Origin: an uncultured bacterium
GTDB taxonomy: Bacteria; Bacillota; Clostridia; Oscillospirales; Oscillospiraceae
Length of the DNA: 64,000 bases
NCBI GenBank assembly: GCA_948469375.1
Contig: CAOKLO010000008.1
Coordinates: 1-64,000, forward strand
Reading direction: 5' to 3'
Numbering within the stretch: the first letter of the stretch is position 1; every line of letters begins with the position of its first letter. The position numbers and the translations under genes are program-made. The notes under the pieces are model-generated. The model was not told where the DNA came from, ran no database searches, and was given only the letters and a program-made list of their open reading frames with translations. Shown piece by piece: positions 5,901 through 38,993 of this stretch.

Positions 5901-8900
5901 GCCGAGTTCAAAGTGACCTATGCGGACGGCACCCTCATCGGCGATAGCAACGGCATTTTCAGGTCCGACGAAAACGGCGAGGTGCTGATTGACGACCTGA
6001 AGCCGGGCTCCAGCGTGGTGGTCACCGAGGTGCGGGCCCCTGCGGGTTTCCTCATCGACACCCAGAGCGTCACCGTTCAGATCAAGGAAGGCCGCACCAT
6101 GTCCGTGGTCATGAAAAACCAGCCCAAAGGAAAACTGATCATTCAGAAGCGGGACAGCCAGACCAACGAGGTCCTGCCCGGCGCTGAGTTCCGGGTCACC
6201 ACCGCCGCCGGCTGCGAGGTTGGTCTGGACGGCGTGATTGGCACTTCCTCCCTGACCCAGAACGGCATTTTCACCACCGACAGCCAGGGCGAGATCCGCA
6301 TTTCCAACCTCGTCCCCGGCGCATATGTCATCAATGAAATCAAAGCCCCGGGCGGCGGGTATGTCATTGACACCCCCTCCACCAACGTGGTCATCGGGCA
6401 GGGCGGCGACACCCAGACAGTGGTGATTAAAAACACCAAGAAGGGTCAGTTGATCGTCGAGAAGTACGATAAGATCACGAAGCAGCCCCTGGCCGGTGCG
6501 CAGTTCAAAATCATGACGGCCAATGGGGAGCTCACCCCCGACAATGAGGGGCTCACCAGCTCCAACGGCCTCTATACCACCGACCAGAACGGCCAAATTG
6601 TGTTGTCCAAGCTCCTGCCCAACACCTATGTGGTTTCTGAGGAACGTGCCCCGGACAATTACCGCAAGGACCCCACCCCGCAGACGGTCGTAGTCAATGC
6701 CGGGGACACGCAGACGGTTCGCTTTTATGACGACCCCCTCTGTACCCTCACCATTTTGAAGCGGGATGCCGTCACCAAGAAGCCCCTGAAGGGCGCTGAG
6801 TTCCTGGTCCGGGACAGCTCCGGCCATGTGATTGGTCCCAACAATGGCCTCTACACCACCGGCACCGACGGCACCGTGACCGTCACCGGGTTGGCCCCCA
6901 ATTCCACGGTGGTGGTGTCTGAGAAACGGGCTCCCACAGGCTACATCCTCGATGAGACTCCCAAAAACATCGTGGTGCGCTCCGGCGTGGCCAACAGCCT
7001 GATTTTTGATAACGAGCCTGGAACCACCCTCATAATCCGGAAATTCGTCGAGGGCACCGAGAACGAGCCCCTGTCTGGCGTGGCCTTTAAGGTCGTGGAC
7101 GGCGCTGGGGCGGCGGTTGGTCCCGACGATGGCGTCTATTATACTGATAAGGCGGGCGAAATCGTCCTGGAGGGCATCGAGCCCGGCACAACAGTGAAGG
7201 TGCGCGAAATCAAGACCGTGGAGGGCTATGTCCTCGATGGCACCCCCCAGGACATCAAAATCAAGGGCGGCGAGGTGCAACAGCTCACATTTTGGAACAA
7301 AAAGGCGGGCACACTGGTCATCGAGAAAAAGGATTCTGTGTCCGGGGCATTCATTTCCGGCGCCCAGTTCCAATTGACGTATGCCAATGGCGGCTACGTT
7401 GACAATATCAATGGTCATTTGTCCTCCAACGGCCTGTATACCACAAACGATAAGGGCCAGATCCGCATTGAGGGCATCGTGGGCACCGTGGTCGCCAAGG
7501 AGGTCAAGGCAGCCCCCGGCTATGTGATCGACCAGTCCACTCAGGTACAGACTGTCACAGTCAACCCCCTGGACACGCAGACACTCACCTTCCTCAACGA
7601 GCCCCTGTGCTCCCTCACCATCACGAAACTGGATTCCGTCACCGGGAAGCCCGTGCCCAACACTTCCTTCGCGGTGAAGGACGGCAACGGGAACGTGCTG
7701 GCCCGCTGCACCACCGGGCAGGATGGCACTGCCACTGTCACCGGCCTCGTGCCCAACAGCACCGTGGTCGTGGTGGAGACCAAAGTACCCTCGGGCTATG
7801 TGCTCAACACCACGCCCCAGACCATCATCGTGAAAAACGGCTCCAACACCCTCACCGGCAGCTCCGGCACCGTGACCACCCCAGGTACGAATCCTGGCGG
7901 CAGCACTGTCGTCAATCCGGGCAGCAATACCGGCACCAGCAATGGCAACGACCTCACCTTTGAGAACGAGCCCAAGCAGACCTTGACCATTCACAAGTAC
8001 ATCGAGGGCACGAAAAACGAGCCTTTGGCCGGTGTGACCTTCAAACTGGTGGACGGCTCCGGCACTCCTGTGGGCTCCAGCGACGGCACCTTTATCACCG
8101 ACAGCAAGGGAGAGATCGTGGTGGAGGGCCTGGAGCCCGGAACCACTATCACCGCCCAGGAGGTCAAGACCGTGGACGGTTTTGTGCTCGACGGCACCCC
8201 GAAATCTGTGAAGATCAAGGCAGGCCAAGGCGCTCCCTCCCTCACCTTCTGGAACGCCAGGGCGGGCGAACTCATTATCCGCAAGCTGGACAAGGCCACC
8301 GGGAAGCCCCTCGCCGGGGTGGAATTTGAGCTGACCTACGCGGGCGGCGGCTACGTCGATAACGCGGACGGCCATTTGAGCAGCAACGGCCTGTATACCA
8401 CCGACGCCCATGGGGAAATTCACATCTCTGGCGTGACCGGGACCATCGTGGTAAAGGAGACTCGGACCATCGACGGGTACACCATCGACCCCGCCACTCA
8501 GACGCAGACGGTAAAGGTCAACCCCCAGGATACGCAAACGCTGACCTTCTACAACGCCCCCAAGCAGACTTTGACCATCCAGAAGTATGTGGACGGCACC
8601 ACCGACCCCATCCAGGGCGTGACCTTCCTTGTCACCGACAGCTCCGGGCAGGTGCTGGGTCCCAACAACGGCGAGTATATCACCGACCGTAATGGCCGCA
8701 TTGTAATCACCGACCTGACCCCCGGAACCACCATCACAGCCAAGGAGACCAAGACCGTTGGCGGCTATGTGCTGGATACCACGCCCCAGTCCATCCTCAT
8801 CAAGAGCGGCGTGGCTCAGACCCTGACCTTCTTCAACAAGGCCGAGGGCGGGCTGGAGCTGATCAAGGTGTCCGCCAGCGACAAATCCCAGCGCATCCCC

Positions 8901-26948: not shown

Positions 26949-27164
26949 ATGTCTATCACCGCGACAGAGCTGAAAAAGAACCTGGGTAAATACCTGGCCC
27001 TGTCCAGCAAGGAGGACATCTACATCACCCGGAACGGAACGGTGGTGGCCAAGCTGTCCAACCCCTTTCAGGACCGGGTGGATATGGCCAAGTCTCTGTT
27101 TGGCATCCTCCCTCCTGACATTACCGTGGAACAGGCCCGTGAGGAAAGGCTGGATCAGATATGA
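26949..27164 (+). CDS. Phd/YefM-type antitoxin
   Basis: A 71-residue antitoxin: the N-terminal SITATELKKNLGKYLALS and DIYITRNGTVVAKL are the Phd/YefM DNA-binding core, and the acidic C-terminus (ITVEQAREERLDQI) is the toxin-binding tail. It shares ATGA with the PIN toxin gene downstream. GAAAGGAG precedes the ATG. Confidence 0.88.
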   Translation: MSITATELKKNLGKYLALSSKEDIYITRNGTVVAKLSNPFQDRVDMAKSLFGILPPDITVEQAREERLDQI

Positions 27165-27592
27165 GGGCGTTAATAGACACCTGTATCATAATTGACGCGC
27201 TCCAGGCCCGGGAACCCTTCGCGGAGGATGCACAGCAAATCTTTCTTGCCGTGGCAAATAAGCGCGTCATGGGCTTCCTCACCGCGAAATCGGCGGCGGA
27301 TATCTACTACATCACCCACCGCCACACCCACAGTGACCAGGAAACCCGGCGTGTGCTGGGCACCCTGTTCAACCTGTTCGAGCTGCTGGATACCGCTGGG
27401 ATGGATTGCCGGCGGGCGATATCGTCCGAACTCACAGACTACGAGGACGCCATGATGACAGAGACCGCCCTGCGCTGCGGGATGGACTGCATCGTGACCA
27501 GAAATCTCAGAGACTATGGAAAAGCCCCCGTTCAGGTGTATTCCCCCTCTGCGTTTTTAACGCAAATCGAGGAGGACATCGGGGAAGAATGA
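27161..27592 (+). CDS. PIN-domain (VapC-type) ribonuclease toxin
   Basis: Seen: 143 residues with the PIN metal-site pattern: Asp6 in ALIDTCIIIDAL, the central acidic DYEDAMMTETAL, and the late MDCIVTRNLRDY. VapC toxins cleave initiator tRNA or rRNA. It starts inside the antitoxin stop, so expression is coupled to its antidote. Acts as an addiction module that stabilises the element. Confidence 0.88.
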   Translation: MRALIDTCIIIDALQAREPFAEDAQQIFLAVANKRVMGFLTAKSAADIYYITHRHTHSDQETRRVLGTLFNLFELLDTAGMDCRRAISSELTDYEDAMMTETALRCGMDCIVTRNLRDYGKAPVQVYSPSAFLTQIEEDIGEE

Positions 27593-27689: not shown

Positions 27690-27920
27690 GTGAATGAGCG
27701 CAGTTTTTCAAATCCCGCCAAGCTGTATTGGTATCAGGATCTCTCCTGTCCCGTCTGCGGCGGGGAGGTGAACTCCTGGGACAAGCGGTGCAGCCGGGCG
27801 CTGGGTTACAAGCAGATCGTGTGCGAGGGCTGTATTGCCCAGGAATACCAAATTGAAGTGAAGGAGCTGAGAGACACCATGAAGGAGCACTTTGGCCTGA
27901 TCCCGTGTCCCGGGATATGA
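27690..27920 (+). CDS. Zinc-ribbon mini-protein leading an unknown operon
   Basis: A 76-residue protein starting with GTG behind GAAAGGAG. Two pairs, CPVC (about 20-23) and CEGC (about 45-48), form a treble-clef or ribbon-like zinc site. Its stop overlaps the ATG of the next gene (ATGA), making it the leader of a tightly coupled operon of four genes to 33658. No family recognised beyond the ribbon. Confidence 0.68.
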   Translation: MNERSFSNPAKLYWYQDLSCPVCGGEVNSWDKRCSRALGYKQIVCEGCIAQEYQIEVKELRDTMKEHFGLIPCPGI

Positions 27921-29002
27921 ACGGGGAGCTGAACGACCTGACCCGGCGGCTCTATGCCCAGGGCTATACCAGGGAGCACCACCCGGACACGGTCTGCTGG
28001 GGCGACTGGCAGAACTTCTCCTACAAGTGGGAGACCATGCTGGGCTTCACCTGGGAGACCCCCTGCGGCCTGCTGATCCAAGGCAGCAGCGATGTTGGGC
28101 GCGGCTTCAACATAGGCAACTGCTGGTTTCAGAACGTCTGGTACTGTGCGGAAAACGACAATCCGCTGCTGCACTGTCCCTATTATCGGAAAAACTGCCA
28201 GCATATCCCGCAGGGATTGAAACTTATTATGTGTCCCTGCCACCGGACGGACAGGCCCTATGACTATGAACACAGTGTGGAAAAAATCGAGACCGAGAAC
28301 GCCAGAGAAGCCCATAAGCAGTACATGGAGCTCACAGGCGGCGCCTACTGCGCCTGTGTGGTGGGCAGCAACGGTTACGAGGGCGGCTGGTACGAGGTCA
28401 AGTATGACGTAGCACAGTGCATCCAGGTACAGTGTAAAAACCCGGTCTGCGTCATCCGCAAGCAGCCCCGTGATTTGAAAAAGGTCAACATTTTCTACGA
28501 TGTCCGCCGCACCTGGATCACCCGCCGGGGCTTTCTGGAGGAGAAAAAGGTGGAGGTCACCAAGGGGATGAAGGTCTTTGACCGCCCCGTGGCCCGGACA
28601 GACGCGGAGATATGGCTGAAGATCAAGGAGCACGAGGCCAGCCCTCTGAACAACTATACCGTGATCGAGCATCCGAGGAAAACCATGGAGGATCGCCGCC
28701 AGGAGTATTTCTCAAAAATGCACCGGCACTATGACGACCTCTATGACTATTTTGAGTTCCACTATGAGGTGGAGAACATCCGCATCGCCCGGAGCGAGCA
28801 GCGGGACCTTTTGCAGGATCTGCGGGACGCCGCCGAGGGCATCGAGGTCGTCCACAACATCGACCAGCTCAAGGCCAAAGCCGAGAAAAAACGGGCGGCC
28901 AAAGTCCACCGCCGGGAGCTGAAGGTGCGCAGGGCGCAAAGAGCGGCCCTGCTGTCCCAAACGGAAGAACAAATTTCCATTTTTGGAGGTGATTCTGAAT
29001 GA
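27917..29002 (+). CDS. Cys-rich unknown protein of the 27.7-33.7 kb operon
   Basis: About 361 residues. The N-terminal half has many Cys and aromatic residues (TVCWGDW, NCWFQNVWYCAEN, LLHCPYYRKNCQ, MCPCHRTDRP), probably two metal-binding knuckles. The C-terminal third is a basic, Arg/Lys-rich coiled coil (QLKAKAEKKRAAKVHRRELKVRRAQRAAL). The ATG at 27917 uses the ATGA overlap; a GTG at 27905 is the alternative. Its end overlaps the next start by four bases. The basic coiled coil suggests nucleic-acid contact. I do not recognise the family. Confidence 0.7.
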   Translation: MNGELNDLTRRLYAQGYTREHHPDTVCWGDWQNFSYKWETMLGFTWETPCGLLIQGSSDVGRGFNIGNCWFQNVWYCAENDNPLLHCPYYRKNCQHIPQGLKLIMCPCHRTDRPYDYEHSVEKIETENAREAHKQYMELTGGAYCACVVGSNGYEGGWYEVKYDVAQCIQVQCKNPVCVIRKQPRDLKKVNIFYDVRRTWITRRGFLEEKKVEVTKGMKVFDRPVARTDAEIWLKIKEHEASPLNNYTVIEHPRKTMEDRRQEYFSKMHRHYDDLYDYFEFHYEVENIRIARSEQRDLLQDLRDAAEGIEVVHNIDQLKAKAEKKRAAKVHRRELKVRRAQRAALLSQTEEQISIFGGDSE

Positions 29003-31146
29003 ATTTGTCAAACATGGGCGCCTATGGGCTGCAAATCAATTTGAAGCTGCTAAACGACATCATTGCTTTTGTCGTCACCACCGCCAAGGCTAATTACGCC
29101 CAGATGGAGGAACTGCGAAAGAGGTGCATATTCCCCCTGTCCTCCACATCCGAAACGCTGCAGCGGGACTATGGCTTTATGTACCTGGGCGAACTGCTGG
29201 AACGGTATGAGGAGCGCTTCGGCATGAGCCTCCCCGACCGCAGGGCCATTGCCCTGGCCCTGGGCTACACCAGGGATATCGCCACACCGGAAATGTTTGT
29301 GGGGAGCCAGCGGGCCGACTTTATCCAGGGGGTGCGGCGGTGCGCGGAAAGCGACCTCTACCTCACCGGCGCCCTCTGCCTGATCTACGGGGGCGAGAGC
29401 GGCGCGGCAGCCATTGAGCAAAAGCTGAAGGAATGGGCATACACCCAGACCGAGGAGCTGATCTTCGCCATGAGCCTGTTTCCCGACGGGGAACAGGCCC
29501 TCGCCCAATTCAGCGACCAGTTAGTGACCCTGCTGGGAAAGGGGCGGACCCTTTCCGTGTTTGGCAACACGGACATTTTTAACCAGGTATTTGCCATGCT
29601 GTTCCCGCTGAAAAAGCGGATGAAGGCCAGACACATGGATCTGCTCCGGGCCCTGCTGTCCCTGCCTGTCTCCTTCGTGAGGGAGGGCAGCAAGCACTAT
29701 GGCTGGCTGACAGACCACGGCTATACCCCCATTGAGATCGCATACGCCAATATTGCGGCCCTGTGCAGCCAGTGTGTTCCCGGCGGCCCCGGACGCAATT
29801 CTCTCACGGCGGAAAAACTTGTTGTCTCGCTGTTCCGCGCCGTTCTGACCCATGACCAGCCCCTGTCTGCCGAGGTCTACCAACAGCTCACCCAAATCTA
29901 TCAGATGTATGCAAAGTTTGACATCAAATGCTATGAGAAACACCGGCTGGCTGAAACATTGACGGTCGGCGTGCATATCCAGACCCCCGAGACCATGGCC
30001 TGGTTCATCCGCTGCACCGACGAACCTCTCCATCCGGCCACCGCCAGCTTCGATGTCATGGATCCCAAGTGGGACCCCCTGGTTGGCAGCCTGGATACGA
30101 AGCACTACCTCAAGCTGTTTGAAAGCTGTCTGACTGAGGACATGGACGCCGCCCAGATCCGCGAACGGTTGGACCGATATCAGGCCCTCACCCAAAAGGA
30201 TTTCCTGGAGCGTTACCGCGAGGACGCCTTTGCCGGCAGGTTCCCTCTCATGGTCAAGGTGGGTATCATCGACCTGTGGACGGCCTTCCAGGGCTGTCTG
30301 TCCGAGGATGGCGATGTATCCAACTCCACCTTGCTGCGCCATATCGGGGGCTGTTGCCATGACATCCAGACGTTGCAGGCGGTCGAATTTCTGACACGGT
30401 TCCTGCCCCAATATGGATTCCAGGGAGCAAAGACATATTTTGGCCGCTATCGGGATGGCTTTGAAGATGAACTGTGGGCGCAAAAAGGCTATAACGGCAG
30501 CGAGATCACACTCAAGCTCCAGCGTGATTTCCTTGCGGATGACCCGGATCGACAGCGCCTGCTGCTCCACTGGGTGGATGAGTATTTTTTCACGAAACAG
30601 CCAAAACGCTACCTTGACTTTGTGATCGCCCTGCTGAAGGATGAGGGCGCGGCCACCCTGCTGTCCCCCGGGGACCAGCGTGGATTATTTGACGCGGTGA
30701 TCGCCCAATCGAAGCTGTCTGCCTGGGACGCTAAAGAGCTAAAACAGCGTTACCTGACGCCGGAGGAACAACAGGCGGATCAGGAGGCCAAAGAGGCGGC
30801 GGAAGCGGAAGAAAAGCGGCAGGCACACTTGGACATGATCCAGAGCATCGAGGCCTGCTATGCCGATTCCAACGATGGCACATTTGGAGCTGTCTTGAAG
30901 TATCTGGATAAGTACCGCTACTACAATGACCGGGAGGCCATTGCCCACCGTGTGGTGCGCGATGGATTGGAACCGCTTTTGGACGGCACTGGGTATGCCC
31001 TGGCCCCAGCGGAGGCGGAGCGTTTTCTGATCGTCTGCCGGGAGCTGCTCCGCACCGGCGCTTTGACCTGGGCAGAGCTGCAATCTTACATTTTGAAGGT
31101 GAAGGAGGTCGAACCGGATGATCCTGACGAAGATCCAGGCGAATGA
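28999..31146 (+). CDS. Large unknown helical protein (715 residues), first of a coupled pair
   Basis: Seen: no signal peptide or membrane helix; long helical, HEAT-like or alpha-solenoid-looking sequence throughout (for example AALCSQCVPGG and MDLLRALLSLP), and a Glu/Ala/Lys-rich coiled coil near the end (EEQQADQEAKEAAEAEEKRQ). It overlaps the preceding gene by four bases (ATGA) and the 846-residue gene by 29 bases. No nuclease, ATPase or phosphotransfer motif is evident. Together with its partner it accounts for 4.7 kb of the element, so it must be worth its cost; a structural, transfer or defence role are all open. Confidence 0.72.
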   Translation: MNLSNMGAYGLQINLKLLNDIIAFVVTTAKANYAQMEELRKRCIFPLSSTSETLQRDYGFMYLGELLERYEERFGMSLPDRRAIALALGYTRDIATPEMFVGSQRADFIQGVRRCAESDLYLTGALCLIYGGESGAAAIEQKLKEWAYTQTEELIFAMSLFPDGEQALAQFSDQLVTLLGKGRTLSVFGNTDIFNQVFAMLFPLKKRMKARHMDLLRALLSLPVSFVREGSKHYGWLTDHGYTPIEIAYANIAALCSQCVPGGPGRNSLTAEKLVVSLFRAVLTHDQPLSAEVYQQLTQIYQMYAKFDIKCYEKHRLAETLTVGVHIQTPETMAWFIRCTDEPLHPATASFDVMDPKWDPLVGSLDTKHYLKLFESCLTEDMDAAQIRERLDRYQALTQKDFLERYREDAFAGRFPLMVKVGIIDLWTAFQGCLSEDGDVSNSTLLRHIGGCCHDIQTLQAVEFLTRFLPQYGFQGAKTYFGRYRDGFEDELWAQKGYNGSEITLKLQRDFLADDPDRQRLLLHWVDEYFFTKQPKRYLDFVIALLKDEGAATLLSPGDQRGLFDAVIAQSKLSAWDAKELKQRYLTPEEQQADQEAKEAAEAEEKRQAHLDMIQSIEACYADSNDGTFGAVLKYLDKYRYYNDREAIAHRVVRDGLEPLLDGTGYALAPAEAERFLIVCRELLRTGALTWAELQSYILKVKEVEPDDPDEDPGE

Positions 31147-33658
31147 GCTTGGGCAAATGATGCGGGAACACATTGCTTGCATCCTGCGGATGGATGCCGT
31201 CCGGCTGAAGCTGGACTGGACGGTGGAATTTACCGCAGGGCAGATCCTTTCCTGTTGTGACAGGATGGTCAAATACCTGGACTGCACGTTGGATCTCCCC
31301 AAGAATGTCCAGCGTGAGCTGATCCAAAACCCGCAGTTTGCCCCCTGGCTGGCCCAGCTGATGGCCTTTGCGGGGGAAGTGACGGCGGATACCGAGCCGG
31401 AGAAGCCCCGTTCGGGCTGGGATGATCTGGCCCAGAGGCTGGATGAGCTGCTGGAGGCCTGTTGGGCCGGGGAAAAAACGATCACTGCCTATTCGGAGAA
31501 CGACGTGCTGTTCGCCATGGAGCAACTCGACCTGACTTCGGCCGCACGGCTGATCTATCTGGAAAACTTTGCCCCCATGGAATTAGACGACGGCACAAGA
31601 GCGCAGATCCTCATGAACCTGCCTGCCTGTAGAGCAGTACCTGTTGCCCTGGACGAAGGCCAGCGGGCATTGCTGAAAGAGCCCTTTGTGGGCTCTCGCT
31701 ATCTGTTCGCCTCAGCGGACTTTGAGGACATCTGGACGCTGTTCCAGTTCTGCCCCGCTTTGGCCGGCATTGCCCGGATGCTCCATCAAAAGAATGTCAA
31801 CGAACATCTTACCCTGACAGACTACCAGTATTTCGCGGAGGACGGGGCGGAGTATCAGCGTCTGCTGGCCCTTGTACTCCAGCGCCTGAGCGCCGATGCC
31901 GCCGGCAGGTTCCTTCACCATTGGCGGGAGAACAACTGCGCCCTGTCCGAGCTCCAGCGCATGGAGCGCCGGACGCGGACAACTGACGCCGGAGATCTGG
32001 ACACTGCCCTGGTCAGCTATACCGGGTATGTAAACCTGATTTATGGCAAAAAGTTTAAGACCATTTCCCTCAATGGATTGACCAGCCGCCAGGAAACGCT
32101 GCTGCTCTACGCCATCATCCACGAAAAGAAGCACTTCATCCGGCTGATCGATGAAAACACGGACAAATTTTTGGGGCTGTCCCAATCGTCCATCCTCTTT
32201 TATGAGCCGCTCTACCGTGACCATTTCAATCTGAACGAACTGACCGCCAGGGATCTGGAGGACTGCCGTTGGATGACGCAGAGGAATCTGCCCAAAAACC
32301 TGCTGGACGGCAGCCGCCAGTACACCTTTCCTGAACTGAAGCTGCTGTATGACGCACCCGGGGCCTACGTCACCCTGTATAGTAAGCTGTGCGCCCCCGG
32401 TTTGGATTATCGGATCAAGGTGCTGCGCCAGCTGCGGAGGCGGAACGTTCTGGATGAGATCAGCGGAGAGATGGATCTGGCCGCGCTGGCCGGATGGCTG
32501 GATCAAAAGCCGCTGGCCGACTGGCAGCGGGAGGAATTCGCCCACATCAAGGATATCCGGGCGGAGGACGCCGCGCAAATGCTGGTACGTCTGGACAAGC
32601 TCCGCCCCGTGCTCCCTTCCATCTGGTGCCGGGCCGACGTGATGCTGGTGCTGCGCAATTTAGACCACCTTGACCGCTTTGACAGCCTGGACGCACTGAA
32701 AGCCAACCTGCTGGAAATAGACCTGGAGTGGAAGGGTCTGGCGGACGTCATGAAATTGAGCCCCGAATTCAAAGAACGGCACCAGGAAGGCATCATCAAG
32801 TTCCTGTGCCAGGACGGGGCCGGGATTGCCGGGACATACCTAGACTCTCTCTCGGAAAAGCTGCACCCGGCGTTCTGCCGGGTGGTGAAGGCCGAGCTGA
32901 TGGGACAGTTCAAAAATCTGAAATACCATACCGGCGACCTGGAACGGGAGCTGGACTACCCGCTCGATGCTCAGGCGAAGGCGGCGTGGACGCATGATCT
33001 TTCCCTTACCCAGGGCCGCACAGAGATCCGGGAAAAGGATGATTTCTTTTCCACCATGCTGTTGGGCACACAGCCCTATGCAACGTGCCTGTCCTATCGC
33101 GGCGGGGCCTACTGCGACTGCCTGCTGGCCTGTTTTGATTCCAATAAAAAGGTGCTGTACGCGGAGCGGGATGGCCGCGTCGTGGCCCGGGCCTGCGTCC
33201 GGCTGACCAAATGCTGTGTGAACGGGACGCCAAAAGACCGGGAAGTCCCCGCCGGTAAATTCAGCTTTGTGGATATAGAGGCCGAGAACGGCCCGCCGGA
33301 GGAGCAGCACCAGGGCGAGCGTTTGGCGCTGTTCCTGGAACACCTCTACAGCAGCGGCCTGAGCCCAGAGGAGCAGCTCCAGATCAAGGCGTTGTTTGTT
33401 CAGCTGGTCCGGCAAAAGGCCGGGATGCTGGGCGCCCTGCTGGTCCTGAGCCTGGATTACCGGGAGGCTGTCGGGGAGGGCTTTGCCCGAACCAGCCTGC
33501 ACCTCTACATCTCCGCGTCGAAAGCTGGCGGGCAGTATCTGGACAGCCTGGGCGGTAACGCGGAGGTGTCCTCGGAGGGCAGCTACAAGAAGAACACCTT
33601 CCTGGTGGAACAGGCCAAGAGCCAGCCGGGAGGTATTGATGAGATGACGCGCACATGA
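31118..33658 (+). CDS. Large unknown protein (846 residues), second of the coupled pair
   Basis: Starts at ATG 31118 inside the upstream gene. Mostly helical N-terminal two thirds; the C-terminal third holds a distinct domain around LLGTQPYATCLSYRGGAYCDCLLACFDSNKKVLYAERDGRVVARA (given by its pieces GTQPYATCL, YCDCLLACFD and VLYAERDG), in which a Cys/Gly turn is followed by paired strands reading 'stored in/own record'-type beta hairpins. This resembles the end domain of PcfJ-like mobile-element proteins only vaguely. No hydrolase motif recognised. Tandem hairpins follow the stop. Confidence 0.72.
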   Translation: MILTKIQANELGQMMREHIACILRMDAVRLKLDWTVEFTAGQILSCCDRMVKYLDCTLDLPKNVQRELIQNPQFAPWLAQLMAFAGEVTADTEPEKPRSGWDDLAQRLDELLEACWAGEKTITAYSENDVLFAMEQLDLTSAARLIYLENFAPMELDDGTRAQILMNLPACRAVPVALDEGQRALLKEPFVGSRYLFASADFEDIWTLFQFCPALAGIARMLHQKNVNEHLTLTDYQYFAEDGAEYQRLLALVLQRLSADAAGRFLHHWRENNCALSELQRMERRTRTTDAGDLDTALVSYTGYVNLIYGKKFKTISLNGLTSRQETLLLYAIIHEKKHFIRLIDENTDKFLGLSQSSILFYEPLYRDHFNLNELTARDLEDCRWMTQRNLPKNLLDGSRQYTFPELKLLYDAPGAYVTLYSKLCAPGLDYRIKVLRQLRRRNVLDEISGEMDLAALAGWLDQKPLADWQREEFAHIKDIRAEDAAQMLVRLDKLRPVLPSIWCRADVMLVLRNLDHLDRFDSLDALKANLLEIDLEWKGLADVMKLSPEFKERHQEGIIKFLCQDGAGIAGTYLDSLSEKLHPAFCRVVKAELMGQFKNLKYHTGDLERELDYPLDAQAKAAWTHDLSLTQGRTEIREKDDFFSTMLLGTQPYATCLSYRGGAYCDCLLACFDSNKKVLYAERDGRVVARACVRLTKCCVNGTPKDREVPAGKFSFVDIEAENGPPEEQHQGERLALFLEHLYSSGLSPEEQLQIKALFVQLVRQKAGMLGALLVLSLDYREAVGEGFARTSLHLYISASKAGGQYLDSLGGNAEVSSEGSYKKNTFLVEQAKSQPGGIDEMTRT

Positions 33659-33723
33659 GGGCGAAAGCCCTCATGCGCCGCAGTATTTTAGGGAGGACGG
33701 CTGCGCCATGCGGCCGTCCTCCC
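33654..33723 (+). terminator. Tandem hairpins after the large unknown operon
   Basis: First hairpin: CATGAGGGC, GAAA tetraloop, GCCCTCATG (33654-33675), overlapping the stop codon. Second: GGGAGGACGGC and GCCGTCCTCCC (33691-33701 with 33713-33723), followed by an ACTTTATA stretch just before the next ribosome site. Confidence 0.65.
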
Positions 33724-33743
33724 GCACTTTATAGGAGGTAGTT

Positions 33744-34220
33744 ATGGGTTACATTTATGAGCTGTTCCAGGCCCCGCGCCCTGCGGACGAATGGACCACA
33801 GAGTATGATTTGAATGAGAGCCCCAGCGCTTTTCCCATTGCCAGCCGGATCGGGGCGGCGATGGATCGGGGTGCCGTGATTGCCCGCTTTGGTGCGTGGC
33901 TGGAGGAGCGGCGGCTGGGCTGGCTGGATGGCGACGTATTTGCCATTGACCCCCAGGCCGCTGAACGCTACTTCGAGGGACGTTATACTGCGTTCCAGAA
34001 AGCCGTTATGGCGCTGCAGGCGCTGAATGAGACCCAGTTCATCCACGACCATGGCTGGGTACAGACGTTGATTGACGCACTGGGCGAAGCATTCACCTCA
34101 AAGTATGGAGACTACGTTCTGCTGGGCGATGATATGACACCCACGCCCTTTGAGGAATTTCTGCGCAAGGCCCAGCCCGGCCAACGCTATTACTTCGGGG
34201 CCGTGTTCTATTACCAATGA
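33744..34220 (+). CDS. Unknown small acidic protein A (158 residues)
   Basis: First of eight small co-directional genes. ATG after AGGAGG. The chain begins MGYIYELFQAPRP and includes two helical blocks (AERYFEGRYTAFQKAVMALQAL, LIDALGEAFTSKYGDYVLLG). No Cys cluster or catalytic motif. It shares an ATGA with an alternative start of the next gene. Acidic, cytosolic; function unknown. Confidence 0.65.
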   Translation: MGYIYELFQAPRPADEWTTEYDLNESPSAFPIASRIGAAMDRGAVIARFGAWLEERRLGWLDGDVFAIDPQAAERYFEGRYTAFQKAVMALQALNETQFIHDHGWVQTLIDALGEAFTSKYGDYVLLGDDMTPTPFEEFLRKAQPGQRYYFGAVFYYQ

Positions 34221-34237
34221 CAGGAGGGCATGCCAAT

Positions 34238-34675
34238 ATGAAAATCTACTGCCTGTTGTCTACGGAAAGCGGCCCGCTCAAAAATAGCGCGACGGTGGAC
34301 CCGTTCCTGCACCATGAGGAGGCTCAGTCAGCCATGAAGGCCGCCTATGAGCGAAAGCTGACAGCGCTGCCGTTCGACGTGTCCCTGCAAGCTGATTGGC
34401 ACCGTTGCTCCTGCGAGAAGAATCTGGCCAGCATCATTGACGGGGCTGGTTCCTATACCTGGTGCGTCCAGGAGCGCGAGTTAGATGTCCAGGTGGCCGT
34501 CGAGGTGCAAGGTGGACTGGTGCAGAACATCTACGCCAACACCGATGTCGATGCCCAGGTCTATGACCTGGACCTGACCGACATCCAGGAGGAGGGCAGC
34601 CTCACCGAAGGGGAACTGCGCCAGGCGGCGCTGACCGAAGTGACCAGCGCACCGGGATGGCGCCACATCTGGTGA
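34238..34675 (+). CDS. Unknown small protein B (145 residues)
   Basis: ATG 34238 follows CAGGAGG; an earlier ATG (34217) overlaps the previous stop. Beta-rich C-terminal half (YTWCVQERELDVQVAVEVQGGLVQNIYANTDVDAQVYDLDLTD, seen as alternating strands) suggests a small barrel or sheet. Two Cys pairs near WHRCSCEKN. Very acidic. Function unknown. Confidence 0.62.
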   Translation: MKIYCLLSTESGPLKNSATVDPFLHHEEAQSAMKAAYERKLTALPFDVSLQADWHRCSCEKNLASIIDGAGSYTWCVQERELDVQVAVEVQGGLVQNIYANTDVDAQVYDLDLTDIQEEGSLTEGELRQAALTEVTSAPGWRHIW

Positions 34676-34708
34676 CAATATTCATTCAATATGAAGAAAG
34701 GAAGCATT

Positions 34709-35134
34709 ATGATGGATTTTTACCAAACACCTATGGGACATACATTCTTTGAGCGCCATGTCCCGCAGCTGATCCAGGCCATTGAGGCCCTTACCTCTGC
34801 GCTGGACAAGCCTGCACAGGCCGTCACCCTGCCGGTGGAGGCCGACCCGGAGTTTCTGTCCAGGCTCTATTTGGGCGAGTATGAGTCCGCGCCCTTCCAG
34901 CAGACCCCGGAGGGAGCGGAACTCACCCGGGCCGTCAACACGGCCCACGATGAGCTGGAAGCGTTGCTGCCCGAGGGCTGCCACGAGAAGCTGATGCAGT
35001 ACCAGGATACCCTGACCATGCGGGAGGGCGTTGATTTGCAGCGGGCCTACGAGTCTGGCTTCCGCACCGCTGTGCAGATGATGGCGGCGGGGCTGTCCCG
35101 GCCCGTGGCCGGACAGTCGGAATCCAATCATTAA
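34709..35134 (+). CDS. DUF6809-like small helical protein
   Basis: ATG 34709 (or 34712) follows AAAGGAAG. The pattern LYLGEYESAPF, helical AVNTAHDELEALLP and the closing YESGFRTAVQMMAAGL matches the short DUF6809-type proteins of Clostridia, which end in a GF/GA-type helix. Function of that family is unknown. Assignment is tentative. Confidence 0.62.
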   Translation: MMDFYQTPMGHTFFERHVPQLIQAIEALTSALDKPAQAVTLPVEADPEFLSRLYLGEYESAPFQQTPEGAELTRAVNTAHDELEALLPEGCHEKLMQYQDTLTMREGVDLQRAYESGFRTAVQMMAAGLSRPVAGQSESNH

Positions 35135-35147
35135 GGGGTGGAGAGCT

Positions 35148-35852
35148 ATGCAGATCATCCACGACCACAGCTACATCAGCCAGACGGGGCAGGAGTTCAT
35201 TTCCCACGGCTATGCCTGTGAGAGCGTATACTCCCTGCGCTTCAGCTTCGTCTACACCGAGACGCAGCAGGGCGAGAACCGCGCCTACGCAGATGAGGTC
35301 GGTTTCCAAAGCAATGCCTGGAGTGCTTACACTGTCACCAATGCTCGGCAGCGCAGCAAGCACATGGAGCGCATCGCCGCCGTCATGGCGCAAAATTTTA
35401 AGGTGTGCCAGTACGGCAGCGAGGATGAAGTTTCGTACAGCTCCGACTGGGATCTGTTCTTCTGGTGTAACGATTTCAGCACAACAATGCGGGGTCTCCT
35501 GACCGGCAGGGACTACGGCTACTTCACACTGTCCTTCAACAGCAGGCACAACCCGGAACGGCGGCAGGAGATCCTTGACCGCGCCATGCGTGTCCTGGAG
35601 CTGTTTGCCGACGACGAAAACCTGCACGTCGCTGTGCAGTATGAGACTGTCATGGACGACGCCAAGATCGAACATGACGCGAAGCTGGCCATCCCCAGGA
35701 TCGCCGGCCAAAAGTGCGTGTACAGCAGCATGGTGGGCCGTGTTGAAACCAATGGGGAGGCCCTGTTTTTCCGGAAGAAACGCTCCCGGAAATATATCTA
35801 CCGGCTGACGGACACGGAGATCCTGTCGATTTCCTGGCAGCTCTCCGCGTAA
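35148..35852 (+). CDS. Unknown protein (234 residues)
   Basis: ATG after AAGGGGTGGAG. Alternating strands and helices: YSLRFSFVYTETQQG, WDLFFWCND, YFTLSFNSRHNPERRQEILDRAMRVLELFADDENLHVAVQYETVMDD (given in parts). Basic C-terminus (RKKRSRKYIYRL). It resembles a ferredoxin-like sandwich but no family is recognised. Followed by a small GC hairpin (35865-35881). Confidence 0.65.
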   Translation: MQIIHDHSYISQTGQEFISHGYACESVYSLRFSFVYTETQQGENRAYADEVGFQSNAWSAYTVTNARQRSKHMERIAAVMAQNFKVCQYGSEDEVSYSSDWDLFFWCNDFSTTMRGLLTGRDYGYFTLSFNSRHNPERRQEILDRAMRVLELFADDENLHVAVQYETVMDDAKIEHDAKLAIPRIAGQKCVYSSMVGRVETNGEALFFRKKRSRKYIYRLTDTEILSISWQLSA

Positions 35853-35895
35853 ACCTGAAACCCCGCCCCAGTTACAGGGGCAGAAGGAGAAGGCA

Positions 35896-36165
35896 ATGAT
35901 AAATTTAGAACAAGTAAATTGGCGCAAGGACGCAGTTACCCAGCGTTTTATCGCAGAACACAAAGCGGAACTGGCTGACCCATCATCCATGACGCCCGAT
36001 TTGCTGGCCGACGCCACCACCTACTGCCAGGGTGATACCAATCCCTACGCCGAGGAACTGGCAAGGCGGGCCGGTATGCTGGAGAAATACCGGCACACTT
36101 CCGGGGAAAAACGCTATGAGGTAGTGTGCCGGGCGGCAAAAGGCTTCAATATTCTGCTGATCTAA
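35896..36165 (+). CDS. Unknown small protein (89 residues)
   Basis: ATG after AGAAGGAGA. Helical acidic protein with VTQRFIAEHKAEL and NPYAEELARRAGMLEKYRH; one Cys pair is not evident. No family recognised. Confidence 0.55.
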   Translation: MINLEQVNWRKDAVTQRFIAEHKAELADPSSMTPDLLADATTYCQGDTNPYAEELARRAGMLEKYRHTSGEKRYEVVCRAAKGFNILLI

Positions 36166-36258
36166 GCCGTGCCAAAGCAGGTTGACCGGGCGGAGTGAAC
36201 TAAGCAGATACACTTATTAAAATCATCTGCAAATCTTATTATGTGAGGAAGCATAACT

Positions 36259-36684
36259 ATGGCAAATTATCACTGTGCGATTCGGACGAACTATTTCCAT
36301 GTAAAGGATTCGGAGTTGTTCCGGCAGTTTATGTCCTGTGTCTACGGAGCGGATGGCTCTATAGAGCTCTGGGAAGAAAAGGATGCCGATGGTCAGGCTA
36401 CGTTCGCTTTTGGCGCCAATGGCGGGATCAGCGGCCTGCGGGATGCGCTTGACGTTGACGAAGCGGGCTACGATGTGTTCATCCGCGGCCTCCAACAGCA
36501 TATCCGGGAAGATGACGCGGTGATCATCCTGGAGGTCGGCCGGGAAAAGCTGTGCTATCTGGTTGGCAGCGCCGAGATCATCACCTGTAACGGCCTTGAA
36601 CAGCTGGACATTTCGGATCTGGCCCAGCACCATGCGGCCATTATGTTAGGCAACCCCAACTGGGAGACAAGTCTTGATTATTAA
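36259..36684 (+). CDS. Widespread mobile-element protein of unknown function (141 residues)
   Basis: The start MANYHCAIRTNYFHVKDSELF is of a type seen on many plasmids and integrative elements; I recall no function. Acidic beta-rich body (WEEKDADGQATFAFGANGG; VIILEVGREKLCYLVGSAEII). Size and acidity are like those of antirestriction or other DNA-mimic proteins, which is a suggestion only. GAGGAAG precedes the ATG; an inverted repeat GCAGAT/ATCTGC (36204-36230) lies upstream. Confidence 0.65.
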   Translation: MANYHCAIRTNYFHVKDSELFRQFMSCVYGADGSIELWEEKDADGQATFAFGANGGISGLRDALDVDEAGYDVFIRGLQQHIREDDAVIILEVGREKLCYLVGSAEIITCNGLEQLDISDLAQHHAAIMLGNPNWETSLDY

Positions 36685-36731
36685 CGAGTTCGCAGGACGT
36701 TGTGAGAAAACAATGAAAGGACTTGAGACAT

Positions 36732-37211
36732 ATGGAACAAATGGCTTTGGAAGATTTCAACCGCCTGGCCAACGGCGACCGGGTGACCCTGGTTCTGGCG
36801 CTGGAGTTGCTGCTTCAAAATGGCCGTAACACCATTCAGCGGGAGGAACCGCTGAAACTGGTTGCCGCCTGTAAAGAGCGCATTGGTGGATTTTTCGAGG
36901 AGGGGGCGCTCCAGGAGATCGTGGATGTCTGCCGTCAACTGACCGCCCTGGACACCAATATCCTGGTGGACTTCATCCAGCGCGGCAGCCTGGACATGAA
37001 AGCTCCCGGCGCGGAGGAGGCGGGTATCTGCCCCGTTTGCGGCGGCGAATTGGAGTATGTGGATACCATCCGTTCCGACAACGGAGGGTTCGCTGTGTGG
37101 ACGTGTCCCGATTGTGGCGCCACGGGCAAAGAGGGGTATGATGAGGTGTTCGACCAGCACTATGATGTAAAGGACGGGGACGGGAAGCCGTTCCCCGCCC
37201 CCGCAGAATAA
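36732..37211 (+). CDS. Zinc-ribbon protein (159 residues)
   Basis: ATG 36732 behind AAAGGA. Helical acidic N-terminal 95 residues, then a zinc ribbon CPVCGGELEY with CPDCGATGKEGYDEV, the pattern of a rubredoxin-like knuckle. Acidic tail with DGDGKPFPAPAE. Function unknown. Confidence 0.65.
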   Translation: MEQMALEDFNRLANGDRVTLVLALELLLQNGRNTIQREEPLKLVAACKERIGGFFEEGALQEIVDVCRQLTALDTNILVDFIQRGSLDMKAPGAEEAGICPVCGGELEYVDTIRSDNGGFAVWTCPDCGATGKEGYDEVFDQHYDVKDGDGKPFPAPAE

Positions 37212-37220
37212 TTTGAACTC

Positions 37221-37262
37221 CGCGCCGGGGTCTGTGGGTTTGCTCCCATAGACCCCGGCGCG
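37221..37262 (+). terminator. Long GC-rich hairpin
   Basis: CGCGCCGGGGTCTGTGGG pairs with CCCATAGACCCCGGCGCG (one G-T pair) over a six-base loop. No T-tract follows and the next start is 23 bases away, so it may block readthrough or control the next gene. Confidence 0.55.
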
Positions 37263-37285
37263 CTGGAAAGATGAGGTGCGCTTTT

Positions 37286-37813
37286 ATGGATGAAGCCAGA
37301 GAAAACGAAAAGCCGGATCTGCCCCGCGAGGAATATGAGCCGGTGGTCGCCCAGACGGTAGAGCTGGGGTTTCTGGGGACGGAGGTTGCCCTGTGCGTCT
37401 TTGATATCCACGGCGACCGGGAGATCAAGACGTGCCACGGGGATATCCGAAAAATTGTTGACGCCCTGCGGGATTATTCCATGTTGCTGAAAATGGTATG
37501 CAAGACGTGGAATTTGCAGGGTTTCCATCGTGTGAAGTATGAATTTTATGCAGATAAGTTGCGGGAAATCGCGGATAAGTTCCAGACCGGGATCGGCTAC
37601 GACTACGATGCCGCCCTGGAGCGGTGCAGGAAAAAGCAGGGCAAAAAGCCACGCAACGAGGATGTGGGCGGCGAGGCCCTTGCTATGGGGTTTCTCAAAG
37701 CTCAGCAGGCGGCGGAGGCCAAGGACAGAAAGGCCGCCGAGAAGGAAAGCGGGGGAACAGCCGATCAAACTGAGGATAGTACGAAGCCTGATTCCTGGGG
37801 GGAAGATTTTTAA
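37286..37813 (+). CDS. Unknown protein with charged C-terminal tail (175 residues)
   Basis: ATG 37286 has GAGGTG at seven bases (37271 is possible). N-terminal alpha/beta region (VELGFLGTEVALCVFDIHGDREI), a central helix, and a long charged tail (EAKDRKAAEKESGGTADQTEDSTKPDSW). No family recognised. Confidence 0.6.
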   Translation: MDEARENEKPDLPREEYEPVVAQTVELGFLGTEVALCVFDIHGDREIKTCHGDIRKIVDALRDYSMLLKMVCKTWNLQGFHRVKYEFYADKLREIADKFQTGIGYDYDAALERCRKKQGKKPRNEDVGGEALAMGFLKAQQAAEAKDRKAAEKESGGTADQTEDSTKPDSWGEDF

Positions 37814-37838
37814 GAATACCAAATAGGAGGATCGCAAG

Positions 37839-38300
37839 ATGCAAAAGAAATACATCCTGCCCGTGGTCGGGCAAATCTACAAAAAACGAAATGGCCGGGA
37901 ATATTGCTGCTTGTCCAACGCCGGCTATACCAGCGAGAGCAGTATGCGTGTGGCCGTGAGCCTTGGGGATCACCAGGCGTCTATGGTCCGCATGAGCGAC
38001 GGCTGGAGCTTTGTGGCCCACGGCTTCCAGCAGTATGAGGACGGAACTGTGGAGTGGAATTTTTCCACCGGTGGGGCCTTCCGGGAGGATGATCTAGACA
38101 GGTGCCGGAAGCTGTTGCAGGCAAACGATCCGGACATGAAGAAATACTTTGACTATCTGGATAATCTGCGCGATTCGGGTACAACAAATATGTTCGGCGC
38201 TGTGCCCTATCTAAAAAGCAGATTTTTTGAGCTGTATGTTGACGAAGCCCGGGCCCGGGAGGTGCTGGCGGCCTGGATGGACAGCCGTTCGGGCCGCTAA
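37839..38300 (+). CDS. Unknown protein (153 residues)
   Basis: ATG after AGGAGG. Last of the small co-directional genes. Contains YILPVVGQIYKKRNGREYCCLSNAGY and, later, LDRCRKLLQANDPDMKKYFDYL. A helical and beta mix with no recognised family. Followed by the TA promoter at 38362. Confidence 0.62.
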   Translation: MQKKYILPVVGQIYKKRNGREYCCLSNAGYTSESSMRVAVSLGDHQASMVRMSDGWSFVAHGFQQYEDGTVEWNFSTGGAFREDDLDRCRKLLQANDPDMKKYFDYLDNLRDSGTTNMFGAVPYLKSRFFELYVDEARAREVLAAWMDSRSGR

Positions 38301-38390: not shown

Positions 38391-38410
38391 AGGTGGTGGA
38401 GGCGATGACT

Positions 38411-38689
38411 ATGAAACTGATACGGCCTGTGTCCGATCTGCGAAACAATTTTGCGGATATCTCCAAGACGGTTCACGAAACAGCCCAGCCTGTGTTTCTG
38501 ACGAAGAACGGCTATGGTGACATGGTCGTCATGAGCATGGAGGCTTTTGAATCGCTGCAATTTGAGAGTGAGATCTACTTCAAACTCCAGGCGGCGGAGC
38601 AGGAGGCCGAGCTGACTGGCCAGCGTTACTCCCCAAAAGAAGTCCTGCAAGCGATGCGGGAGGCCATTGGAGGGGAGCAGGTTGTATAA
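38411..38689 (+). CDS. Phd/YefM-type antitoxin (second copy)
   Basis: Seen: MKLIRPVSDLRNNFADISKTV and QPVFLTKNGYGDMVVMSMEAF are the Phd/YefM core; acidic helix and tail follow. ATG 38411 lies eight bases from GGAGG. Its end overlaps the toxin start region. Its upstream palindrome supports autoregulation. It is only distantly like the antitoxin at 26949. Confidence 0.88.
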   Translation: MKLIRPVSDLRNNFADISKTVHETAQPVFLTKNGYGDMVVMSMEAFESLQFESEIYFKLQAAEQEAELTGQRYSPKEVLQAMREAIGGEQVV

Positions 38690-38993
38690 GCTGGAGTATC
38701 TGCCTGCGGCACGCCAGGACATGGTGGAGATCGTGCGGTATATCAGCCGGGAACTTCATAACCCATCGGCTGCGGAGCACCTGGCTATGGCGCTGATCGA
38801 AGCGGGGGACAGCATACCGCAGTTCCCCTATGCAAATCCTGCCTATACTCCCATCAGGCCGCTGAAGCATGAGTACCGAAAGCGGCTGGTGCAGAATTAC
38901 ATCATGTTTTATTGGGTGGACGAAAGTAAGAAGCTGGTAACGGTGGCCCGCGTCATCTACGCAAAACGAGAATTTGAACGGCTGCTTGAATGA
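38682..38993 (+). CDS. RelE/ParE-superfamily toxin (second copy)
   Basis: Seen: YKLEYLPAARQDMVEIVRYISREL is the ParE/RelE start, then LKHEYRKRLVQNYIMFYWVDESKKLVTVARVIYAKRE, the C-terminal sheet of the family. TTG 38682, eight bases inside the antitoxin end, follows GGAGGGGAGCAGG; a TTG at 38667 is possible but longer than usual. Full length. ParE-type members poison gyrase, RelE-type cleave mRNA; sequence alone does not tell which. Confidence 0.85.
   Translation: MYKLEYLPAARQDMVEIVRYISRELHNPSAAEHLAMALIEAGDSIPQFPYANPAYTPIRPLKHEYRKRLVQNYIMFYWVDESKKLVTVARVIYAKREFERLLE

What the first reader, a model, noticed from the sequence alone, without database searches (positions are those of the whole stretch)
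27690..38300. Large block of unknown genes bracketed by two toxin-antitoxin pairs
Twelve co-directional genes with no recognised function lie between a Phd/VapC pair and a Phd/ParE pair. The core is a tightly coupled four-gene operon (zinc mini-protein, Cys-rich basic protein, 715- and 846-residue proteins) with overlaps of 4, 4 and 29 bases. Such size and coupling, no hydrolase motif, and the position on an element are what an undescribed transfer, packaging or defence/anti-defence module would look like. This is the best candidate for a new system in the window.
Basis: partly seen in the sequence, partly recalled or inferred. Interest (0 to 1): 0.72.

Follow-up and report, generated by a model that had tools for sequence, protein, structure and literature searches.

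The report
Two-gene module with acyltransferase-like domain
A mobile DNA element of a gut bacterium carries a pair of linked, unnamed large genes whose products look like a two-part helical scaffold holding a divergent transferase-like domain; what it acts on is unknown.

Summary
The block is real: 13 (not 12) co-directional genes between Phd/PIN and Phd/ParE pairs, with overlaps of 4, 4 and 29 bp. It is not one four-gene system: it holds two separable pairs and a variable tail. g1-g2 also occur on IMG/VR contigs without g3-g4. g3-g4 (715 and 846 aa) are adjacent in 21 of 21 places where both sides could be read; their ORFs overlap in 14 of 14 non-redundant loci. The TA pairs are not linked to g3-g4. 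g2, g3 and g4 match no family model at E <= 0.05. AlphaFold gives g3 as a helical solenoid and g4 as a solenoid plus an alpha/beta C-terminal domain. That domain matches GNAT acyltransferases weakly but consistently, by Foldseek and by profile comparison with two GNAT families; the CoA P-loop is absent in 14 of 14. Best reading: a solenoid-scaffolded GNAT-fold transferase, accessory cargo of Clostridia conjugative elements, donor and target unknown. A transfer-core role is disfavoured; anti-defence or host takeover is untested.

The parts
27690..27920 (+). g1, 76 aa zinc-ribbon mini-protein, weakly Lar-like; partner of g2
   Evidence: PHROG 599 (Lar-like) 9.6e-4, TIGR03655 1.6e-3 below cut-off; next to g2 in L005, L093, L086, L087
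27905..29002 (+). g2, 365 aa (361 from ATG 27917), Cys-rich, no family
   Evidence: 60-62% relatives on IMG/VR contigs L086/L087 without g3-g4 in the DNA held
28999..31146 (+). g3, 715 aa, all-helical solenoid, predicted scaffold partner of g4
   Evidence: AF2 pLDDT 85.2, pTM 0.67; Foldseek gives generic helical-repeat proteins; beside g4 in 21 of 21 readable places
31118..33658 (+). g4, 846 aa: helical N-terminal part (about 1-625) plus GNAT-like alpha/beta C-terminal domain (about 629-831)
   Evidence: AF2 pLDDT 81.6, pTM 0.55; Foldseek; hhalign
32933..33655 (+). C-terminal domain of g4 (residues 606-846), most conserved part of the module
   Evidence: mean pairwise identity 45% against 33% for the g4 N-terminal part in the 76 of 91 pairs with g3 identity under 60%; 44 invariant columns in residues 639-828 in 14 loci, 27 of them polar, Cys or Tyr
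31118..31146 (+). 29-bp overlap of g3 end and g4 start, with AAGGAGG upstream of the g4 start inside g3
   Evidence: overlap of 4-38 bp in 14 of 14 loci
33744..38300 (+). g5-g13, variable accessory genes; g5, g7, g13 recur in L004, g10 in L032, the g13 N-terminus directly upstream of g3 in 7 other loci
26949..27592 (+). Phd-like antitoxin and PIN-domain toxin, incidental neighbours
   Evidence: absent in L004 and L005, present in L093
38393..38993 (+). Phd/YefM antitoxin and ParE toxin, incidental neighbours
   Evidence: absent in L004

Best explanation
g3-g4 is a two-subunit module carried as accessory cargo by conjugative elements of Clostridia (mostly Oscillospiraceae and relatives). g3 and the first ~625 residues of g4 are helical solenoids that assemble with each other (inferred) and present the C-terminal domain of g4, a divergent GNAT-fold domain. 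That domain most likely transfers an acyl or aminoacyl group to a target held by the solenoids. Because the CoA-binding P-loop of ordinary GNATs is missing, the donor is likely bound differently from acetyl-CoA in ordinary GNATs or is not acyl-CoA at all; aminoacyl-tRNA, as in FemABX enzymes, is one candidate. The activity would serve the element's establishment or maintenance in its host. Shown: conserved genes under purifying selection, strict pairing, ORF overlap. Predicted: folds. Inferred: complex, catalysis, donor, target, benefit.
For: Pairing in 21 of 21 readable places, near-copies included; overlap of 4-38 bp in 14 of 14. Purifying selection. AF2 models. Foldseek of g4 on PDB: 35 of the 50 rows shown (several are chains of one entry) are titled acetyltransferases, best probability 1.00, best E 0.031, best TMt 0.57. 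BFVD: 11 of the 50 rows shown bear acetyltransferase, acyltransferase or NAT_SF names and one is a FemAB protein. hhalign of the C-terminal domain with correctly oriented sets: PF13480 P 0.0018 and, reversed, 0.00043; PF00583 P 0.0062 and 0.0079, over 81 columns running from alpha2 to alpha3 in the register of the predicted fold; 0 of 300 column shuffles reach either score. Decoys: PcfJ P 0.10-0.13 (23 of 300 shuffles reach it), VirD4 P 0.16-0.17. 1 of 10 members hits PF13480 in Pfam at E 0.11. FemABX enzymes use the GNAT fold without AcCoA (PMC4964394, passages).
Against: No PDB Foldseek hit has E <= 0.001 and TM-scores are low. No Pfam, NCBIfam or PDB sequence hit. pLDDT is under 50 at 653-665, 704-730, 812-814 and 817-821, inside the putative active region. 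The profile P-values are modest for four families tested; PF13480 was picked after the weak hint; two true GNAT families compared with one another gave only P 0.11 and 0.079, so the method is insensitive here. The canonical P-loop is absent at the expected loop in 14 of 14, so CoA-dependent catalysis is not supported. PF13480 is not clearly preferred over PF00583, so nothing but the missing P-loop points to aminoacyl-tRNA. Complex formation was not modelled. The neighbourhood does not name a target.
Confidence: 0.5

Rival explanations
1. g3-g4 is an anti-defence or host-takeover system of the element's establishment region: whatever its chemistry, it blocks a host defence when the element enters a new cell.
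For: Neighbours in distant relatives include ArdC (L032), an SNF2/N6-methylase protein (L033) and a PAPS-reductase-domain protein (L035), and DUF932 lies about 6 kb upstream in the window. Leading regions of plasmids are anti-defence hotspots (PMC11541004, abstract).
Against: No oriT or leading region was mapped; neighbours differ between lineages; PADLOC covers defence, not anti-defence, and gives nothing.
Confidence: 0.25
2. g3-g4 is a toxin-type or phage-defence effector system (GNAT toxin acting on tRNA or translation, controlled by the solenoid partner).
For: Foldseek rows include 7byy, titled bacterial toxin, and the tRNA cytidine acetyltransferase 2zpa; a DUF3990 gene lies directly downstream in L035 and its near-copy G475, and a look-alike ORF in L077.
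Against: No small antitoxin-like partner is conserved with the pair; the P-loop of CoA-using GNATs is absent; no PADLOC hit.
Confidence: 0.15
3. g3-g4 is part of the conjugation or DNA-processing machinery itself.
For: Located on elements with VirD4, about 1.7 kb left of the window in the sister assembly and close by in L031; PcfJ-type and ligase ORFs stand upstream in 9 of 9 loci of the 29% clade (Pfam confirmed for one of them, L021).
Against: G145, G118, G475 and G651 hold 5, 7, 10 and 28 VirD4 matches (fragments counted) against 1, 1, 2 and at least 2 g3-g4 loci found; the pair's position relative to VirD4 is not conserved.
Confidence: 0.1
4. The C-terminal domain of g4 is GNAT-like only in shape and not catalytic; g3-g4 is a purely structural or adaptor complex.
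For: P-loop missing; weak fold scores.
Against: That domain is the most conserved part, with 27 polar, Cys or Tyr residues among 44 invariant positions of residues 639-828.
Confidence: 0.2

Closest known systems
GNAT acyltransferases such as AAC(3)-Ia (1bo4) and the Acetyltransf_1 family PF00583
   Same: best Foldseek matches of the g4 C-terminal domain; profile match P 0.006-0.008 over 81 columns in register
   Different: no Q/R-x-x-G-x-G/A motif at the expected loop in 14 of 14; no family-model hit; carried on a ~600-residue solenoid with a second solenoid protein
FemABX aminoacyl transferases / PF13480 (GNAT fold without acetyl-CoA)
   Same: profile match P 0.0018 and 0.00043 in register; no CoA P-loop (that PF13480 covers FemX-like proteins is recalled)
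   Different: FemABX act in cell-wall peptide synthesis and FemA has two GNAT domains (PMC4964394 passages); here one GNAT-like domain; the match is not clearly better than that to PF00583
NatA-type complex: GNAT subunit on a helical auxiliary subunit (9fpz_B)
   Same: idea of a GNAT presented by a large helical scaffold; the NatA-MAP2-ribosome entry is rank 19 of g3's Foldseek list
   Different: scores are generic for solenoids (E 0.062, TMq 0.17); no sequence relation shown; that chain B is the helical subunit is recalled
PcfJ-like proteins (PF14284)
   Same: similar size, conjugative elements, PcfJ-type ORF upstream in 9 of 9 loci of one clade
   Different: profile comparison with the g4 C-terminal domain P 0.08-0.13, 23 of 300 shuffles as good; low Foldseek probability 0.09-0.20 in BFVD

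Membership tests
GNAT superfamily | GNAT fold | tested here: inconclusive
   AF2 secondary-structure order fits roughly, with an extra strand; Foldseek probability up to 1.00 but E >= 0.031 and TMt <= 0.57
GNAT superfamily | sequence relation to GNAT families | tested here: inconclusive
   hhalign P 0.0018/0.00043 (PF13480) and 0.0062/0.0079 (PF00583), 0 of 300 shuffles each; but no family-model hit: best GNAT hit PF13480 in 1 of 10 at E 0.11
GNAT superfamily | P-loop Q/R-x-x-G-x-G/A before alpha3 (consensus from PMC4964394) | tested here: not met
   0 of 14 in the region 735-760
FemABX | closer to PF13480 than to other GNAT families | tested here: inconclusive
   P-values for PF13480 are lower than for PF00583 but not clearly so
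FemABX | aminoacyl-tRNA as donor | not testable with these tools
   needs biochemistry
PcfJ | PF14284 domain | tested here: not met
   no hit in Pfam scans; hhalign P 0.08-0.13
core conjugation (T4SS) machinery | present wherever VirD4 is present | tested here: not met
   VirD4 matches outnumber g3-g4 loci found in G145, G118, G475, G651
known anti-phage defence system | match to a PADLOC model | tested here: not met
   10 of 13 genes scanned incl. g1-g4: only hit E 0.092, on g11
anti-defence of a leading region | position next to oriT on the leading side and an effect on establishment | not tested
   no oriT mapped; no phenotype available
toxin-antitoxin system bracketing a cargo | TA pairs linked to g3-g4 | tested here: not met
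   L004 has g3-g4 without either TA pair; L030 has both TA pairs without intact g3-g4

The most novel reading that the evidence does not exclude
A previously undescribed class of mobile-element enzyme: a two-protein solenoid complex that presents a P-loop-less GNAT domain and uses aminoacyl-tRNA (or another unusual donor) to modify a host target so that the conjugative element can establish itself.
Probability: 0.11. Interest if true: 0.75.

Novelty: new variant of a known kind. Interest (0 to 1): 0.43.

Why it matters
Conjugative elements of gut Clostridia carry large genes without any family. Here a diffuse 'block of unknowns' is reduced to one strictly paired gene couple with a testable structural prediction and a list of invariant residues. 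If the transferase reading holds, it would add a scaffolded, P-loop-less GNAT enzyme to the tools by which mobile elements act on their hosts; if not, the pair still defines a protein family that needs a structure.

Tried and rejected
Family libraries: Pfam (all 13 genes; alignments), PHROGs and NCBIfam (10 of 13 genes; g4 alignment) and PADLOC (10 of 13) give nothing for g2, g3, g4 at E <= 0.05. PDB sequence searches of g3 and g4 gave no convincing hit (best OS-9, E 0.0078, 38 residues). g3 against g4: no profile similarity (P 0.066). Four genes as one unit: rejected. TA pairs as part of the module: rejected. Stand-alone C-terminal domains: none seen in 391 class-level and 398 phylum-level genomes. 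Literature searches found no paper on such a pair in the listings; this is not proof that none exists.

A fault found and mended: the GNAT comparisons used genome-search loci as if they were turned to the match strand. They are not (one search shows L042/L043 on the minus strand), so the minus-strand rows were antisense or dropped. Those calls gave PF13480 P 0.0082 (10 rows) and 0.003/0.0008 (11 rows; 0 of 300 shuffles, maximum 26.9 against 27.3), PF00583 P 0.02-0.23, PcfJ 0.03-0.25. One search repeated the test with every row oriented (16 of 16, 16 of 16, 8 of 8 and 8 of 8 rows kept) and replaces them. It made the GNAT match stronger and, for PF00583, turned a miss into a match; it also removed the preference for PF13480. 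For this I raised the GNAT fold from about 0.65 to 0.75 and the best explanation from 0.45 to 0.5, and lowered the novel case from 0.12 to 0.11.

Rows dropped before the 14-locus counts: L003 (near-identical to the window), L034 (same contig as L031), L044/L045, L046 and L047 (near-copies of L035 or L031), L028 (internal stop in the g4 frame), L004 (g3 incomplete at its start), L005 and L093 (cut by contig ends), MT839254 (not fetched), L030 (deletion remnant). G731 (L077) is missing from the neighbourhood table through a script slip and was listed.
Full report
What is there. Between a Phd/PIN pair (26949-27592) and a Phd/ParE pair (38393-38993) lie 13 + strand genes, 27690-38300. I call them g1 to g13. 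dN/dS is 0.40 (g1), 0.23 (g2), 0.20 (g3) and 0.31 (g4 residues 1-317) against the copies on L005, and 0.24 (g4) against L004.

Host and element. The window is contig C8, 1-64000, of an unnamed 3.68-Mb genome. A near-identical stretch (99.4-100% per protein) lies on CAJTGJ010000013.1, 'Oscillospiraceae bacterium isolate B95_20_FP_BP'. On that contig a VirD4 gene (PF02534, 7.3e-44) ends about 1.7 kb left of what is window base 1 (offset computed from L003's coordinates). The window also has a 2422-aa SpaA-repeat protein and a C39-peptidase protein, DUF932, a pentapeptide protein, an actin-like (ParM-type) protein and a YpsA/SLOG protein. So the block sits on a conjugative element or its remnant.

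Does the block travel as a unit? No. g1-g2 form one pair: next to each other in L005, in L093 (G1441), and on IMG/VR contigs L086 and L087 at about 60-65% identity, with neither g3 nor g4 in the DNA held (10 kb downstream in L086, 2.6 kb in L087). L086 carries terminase- and portal-like ORFs downstream (so named by recall, no library call). g3-g4 form the other pair. Places where g3 or g4 was found: window/L003, L004, L005, L014, L015, MT839254, L016, L019, L021, L024, L026, L028, L031, L032, L033, L035, L036, G475 C63, L046, L047, L077. In all 21 both are adjacent and on the same strand. Some are near-copies (L046, L047 of L031; G475 C63 of L035). Two further places cannot count: L093 is cut by the contig end, and L030 (C66 of the own genome) keeps only 52 codons of g3 and 39 of g2 in a deletion remnant that still has both TA pairs, g1 and g13. 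In 14 non-redundant complete loci the two ORFs overlap by 4 to 38 bp. Pairwise identities of g3 and g4 correlate (Spearman 0.87, 91 pairs), as co-inheritance alone would also give.

How common. g3 in 7 of 300 genomes of the family; g4 in 6 of 394 of the order; its C-terminal domain in 2 of 391 of the class and 1 of 398 of the phylum; the own genome is counted in each and is the only one in the last. In the plasmid collection 1 record matches g3 (Subdoligranulum variabile OY725878); in the phage collection 2 human-fecal 'Bacteriophage sp.' records match g3 and g4. In what was searched it is a narrow Clostridia family on mobile DNA.

Neighbourhoods. In the clade at 29% identity, PcfJ-type and ligase-type ORFs stand upstream of g3-g4 in 9 of 9 loci (families confirmed by Pfam for L021 only), and a homologue of the first 79 residues of g13 is directly upstream in 7 of 9. 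Elsewhere: VirD4 and a Clp protease upstream (L031), ArdC upstream and a HipA-like gene downstream (L032), an SNF2/N6-methylase protein downstream (L033), DUF3990 and a PAPS-reductase domain downstream (L035); L077 has a downstream ORF that looks like DUF3990 by recall. The one constant is the pair itself. VirD4 matches (5, 7, 10 and 28 in G145, G118, G475 and G651, fragments included) exceed the g3-g4 loci found there (1, 1, 2 and at least 2), so it is not a required transfer part.

Structure. AlphaFold2 from seven-row alignments: g3 all-helical, mean pLDDT 85.2, pTM 0.67; g4 helical to about residue 625, then an alpha/beta domain 629-831, mean pLDDT 81.6, pTM 0.55. Foldseek of g3 against the PDB returns generic helical-repeat proteins in the 50 rows shown, none at E <= 0.001. 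Foldseek of g4 against the PDB: 460 matches, none at E <= 0.001; of the 50 rows shown, 35 are titled acetyltransferases (several rows are chains of one entry), most of the others I recall as GNAT-fold, and one is a TAL effector; best E 0.031, best TMt 0.57, best probability 1.00. Against BFVD one match passes 0.001, a 656-aa uncharacterized 'Bacteriophage sp.' protein aligned over 807 columns (E 3.4e-4, but TMt only 0.20); of the other 49 rows shown, 11 bear acetyltransferase, acyltransferase or NAT_SF names, one is a FemAB protein and three, at probability 0.09-0.20, are PcfJ proteins.

Sequence test of the GNAT idea. No family model matches the C-terminal domain; PF13480 is touched by 1 of 10 members at E 0.11. 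Profile comparison of 11 C-terminal domains, in both directions: PF13480 P 0.0018 and 0.00043; PF00583 P 0.0062 and 0.0079; PcfJ 0.10 and 0.13; VirD4 0.17 and 0.16. With the first 10 domains only: 0.0035 and 0.00053; 0.0096 and 0.0042; 0.079 and 0.081; 0.13 and 0.17. Of 300 column shuffles, 0 reach the PF13480 score (28.6; highest 24.3), 0 the PF00583 score (23.5; highest 21.1) and 23 the PcfJ score. The PF13480 columns lie on predicted alpha1-alpha2-beta2-beta3, the PF00583 columns on alpha2 to alpha3, both in the register of the predicted fold. Against this: two true GNAT families compared with one another gave only P 0.11 and 0.079, so the method is insensitive, four families were tried, and PF13480 was chosen after the hint. 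Earlier versions of this test contained wrong-strand rows and are superseded (see Tried and rejected). I hold the GNAT fold likely (about 0.75) but not shown.

Chemistry. The P-loop consensus of CoA-using GNATs, Gln/Arg-x-x-Gly-x-Gly/Ala (PMC4964394, passages), is absent at the expected place in 14 of 14. FemABX enzymes use the GNAT fold with aminoacyl-tRNA and without AcCoA (same paper, passages). Of 44 invariant positions in residues 639-828, 27 are polar, Cys or Tyr, among them T656-C657, D674-S675-N676-K677, R691, R695, T697-K698, E741, Y744, S799, K802, Q806, Y807, D809-S810. This is the pattern of an active site (inference), and the domain is more conserved (45%) than the helical part (33%) in 76 divergent pairs. 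From this I infer a transferase with an unusual donor or unusual donor binding.

Conclusion. The unit is g3-g4. It is best read as a solenoid-scaffolded, P-loop-less GNAT-like transferase, accessory to Clostridia conjugative elements. Target, donor and benefit are open.

Noticed in passing
L030 (contig C66 of the own genome), 7035-9816, minus strand: A deletion remnant of the same block: both TA pairs, g1 and g13 are kept, g2, g3 and g12 survive as fragments and no g4 was found.
   Followed up: partly
L086:2696-4095 and L087:1105-2525: The g1-g2 pair occurs on IMG/VR contigs; in L086 between methylase-like ORFs and terminase/portal-like ORFs (named by recall), so g1-g2 may be a phage early-region accessory pair (g1 weakly Lar-like).
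   Followed up: partly
window 2967-10235: A 2422-aa SpaA-repeat protein (20 matched stretches) on the element, near the transfer genes.
   Followed up: no
L021:6176-12036 and relatives: DUF7666, PcfJ and an NAD-dependent DNA ligase lie upstream of g3-g4, with PcfJ- and ligase-type ORFs in the same place in nine loci of one clade.
   Followed up: partly
L035:7262-8209 and L077:12988-14293: Directly downstream of g4 stands a DUF3990 gene (L035, Pfam 9e-47) or a look-alike (L077), with small ORFs that resemble a toxin-antitoxin arrangement by recall.
   Followed up: no
BFVD A0A7G9A3X2: A 656-aa uncharacterized phage protein matches the g4 model at E 3.4e-4 over 807 alignment columns (TMt 0.20), a possible distant relative that sequence searches did not reach.
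   Followed up: no
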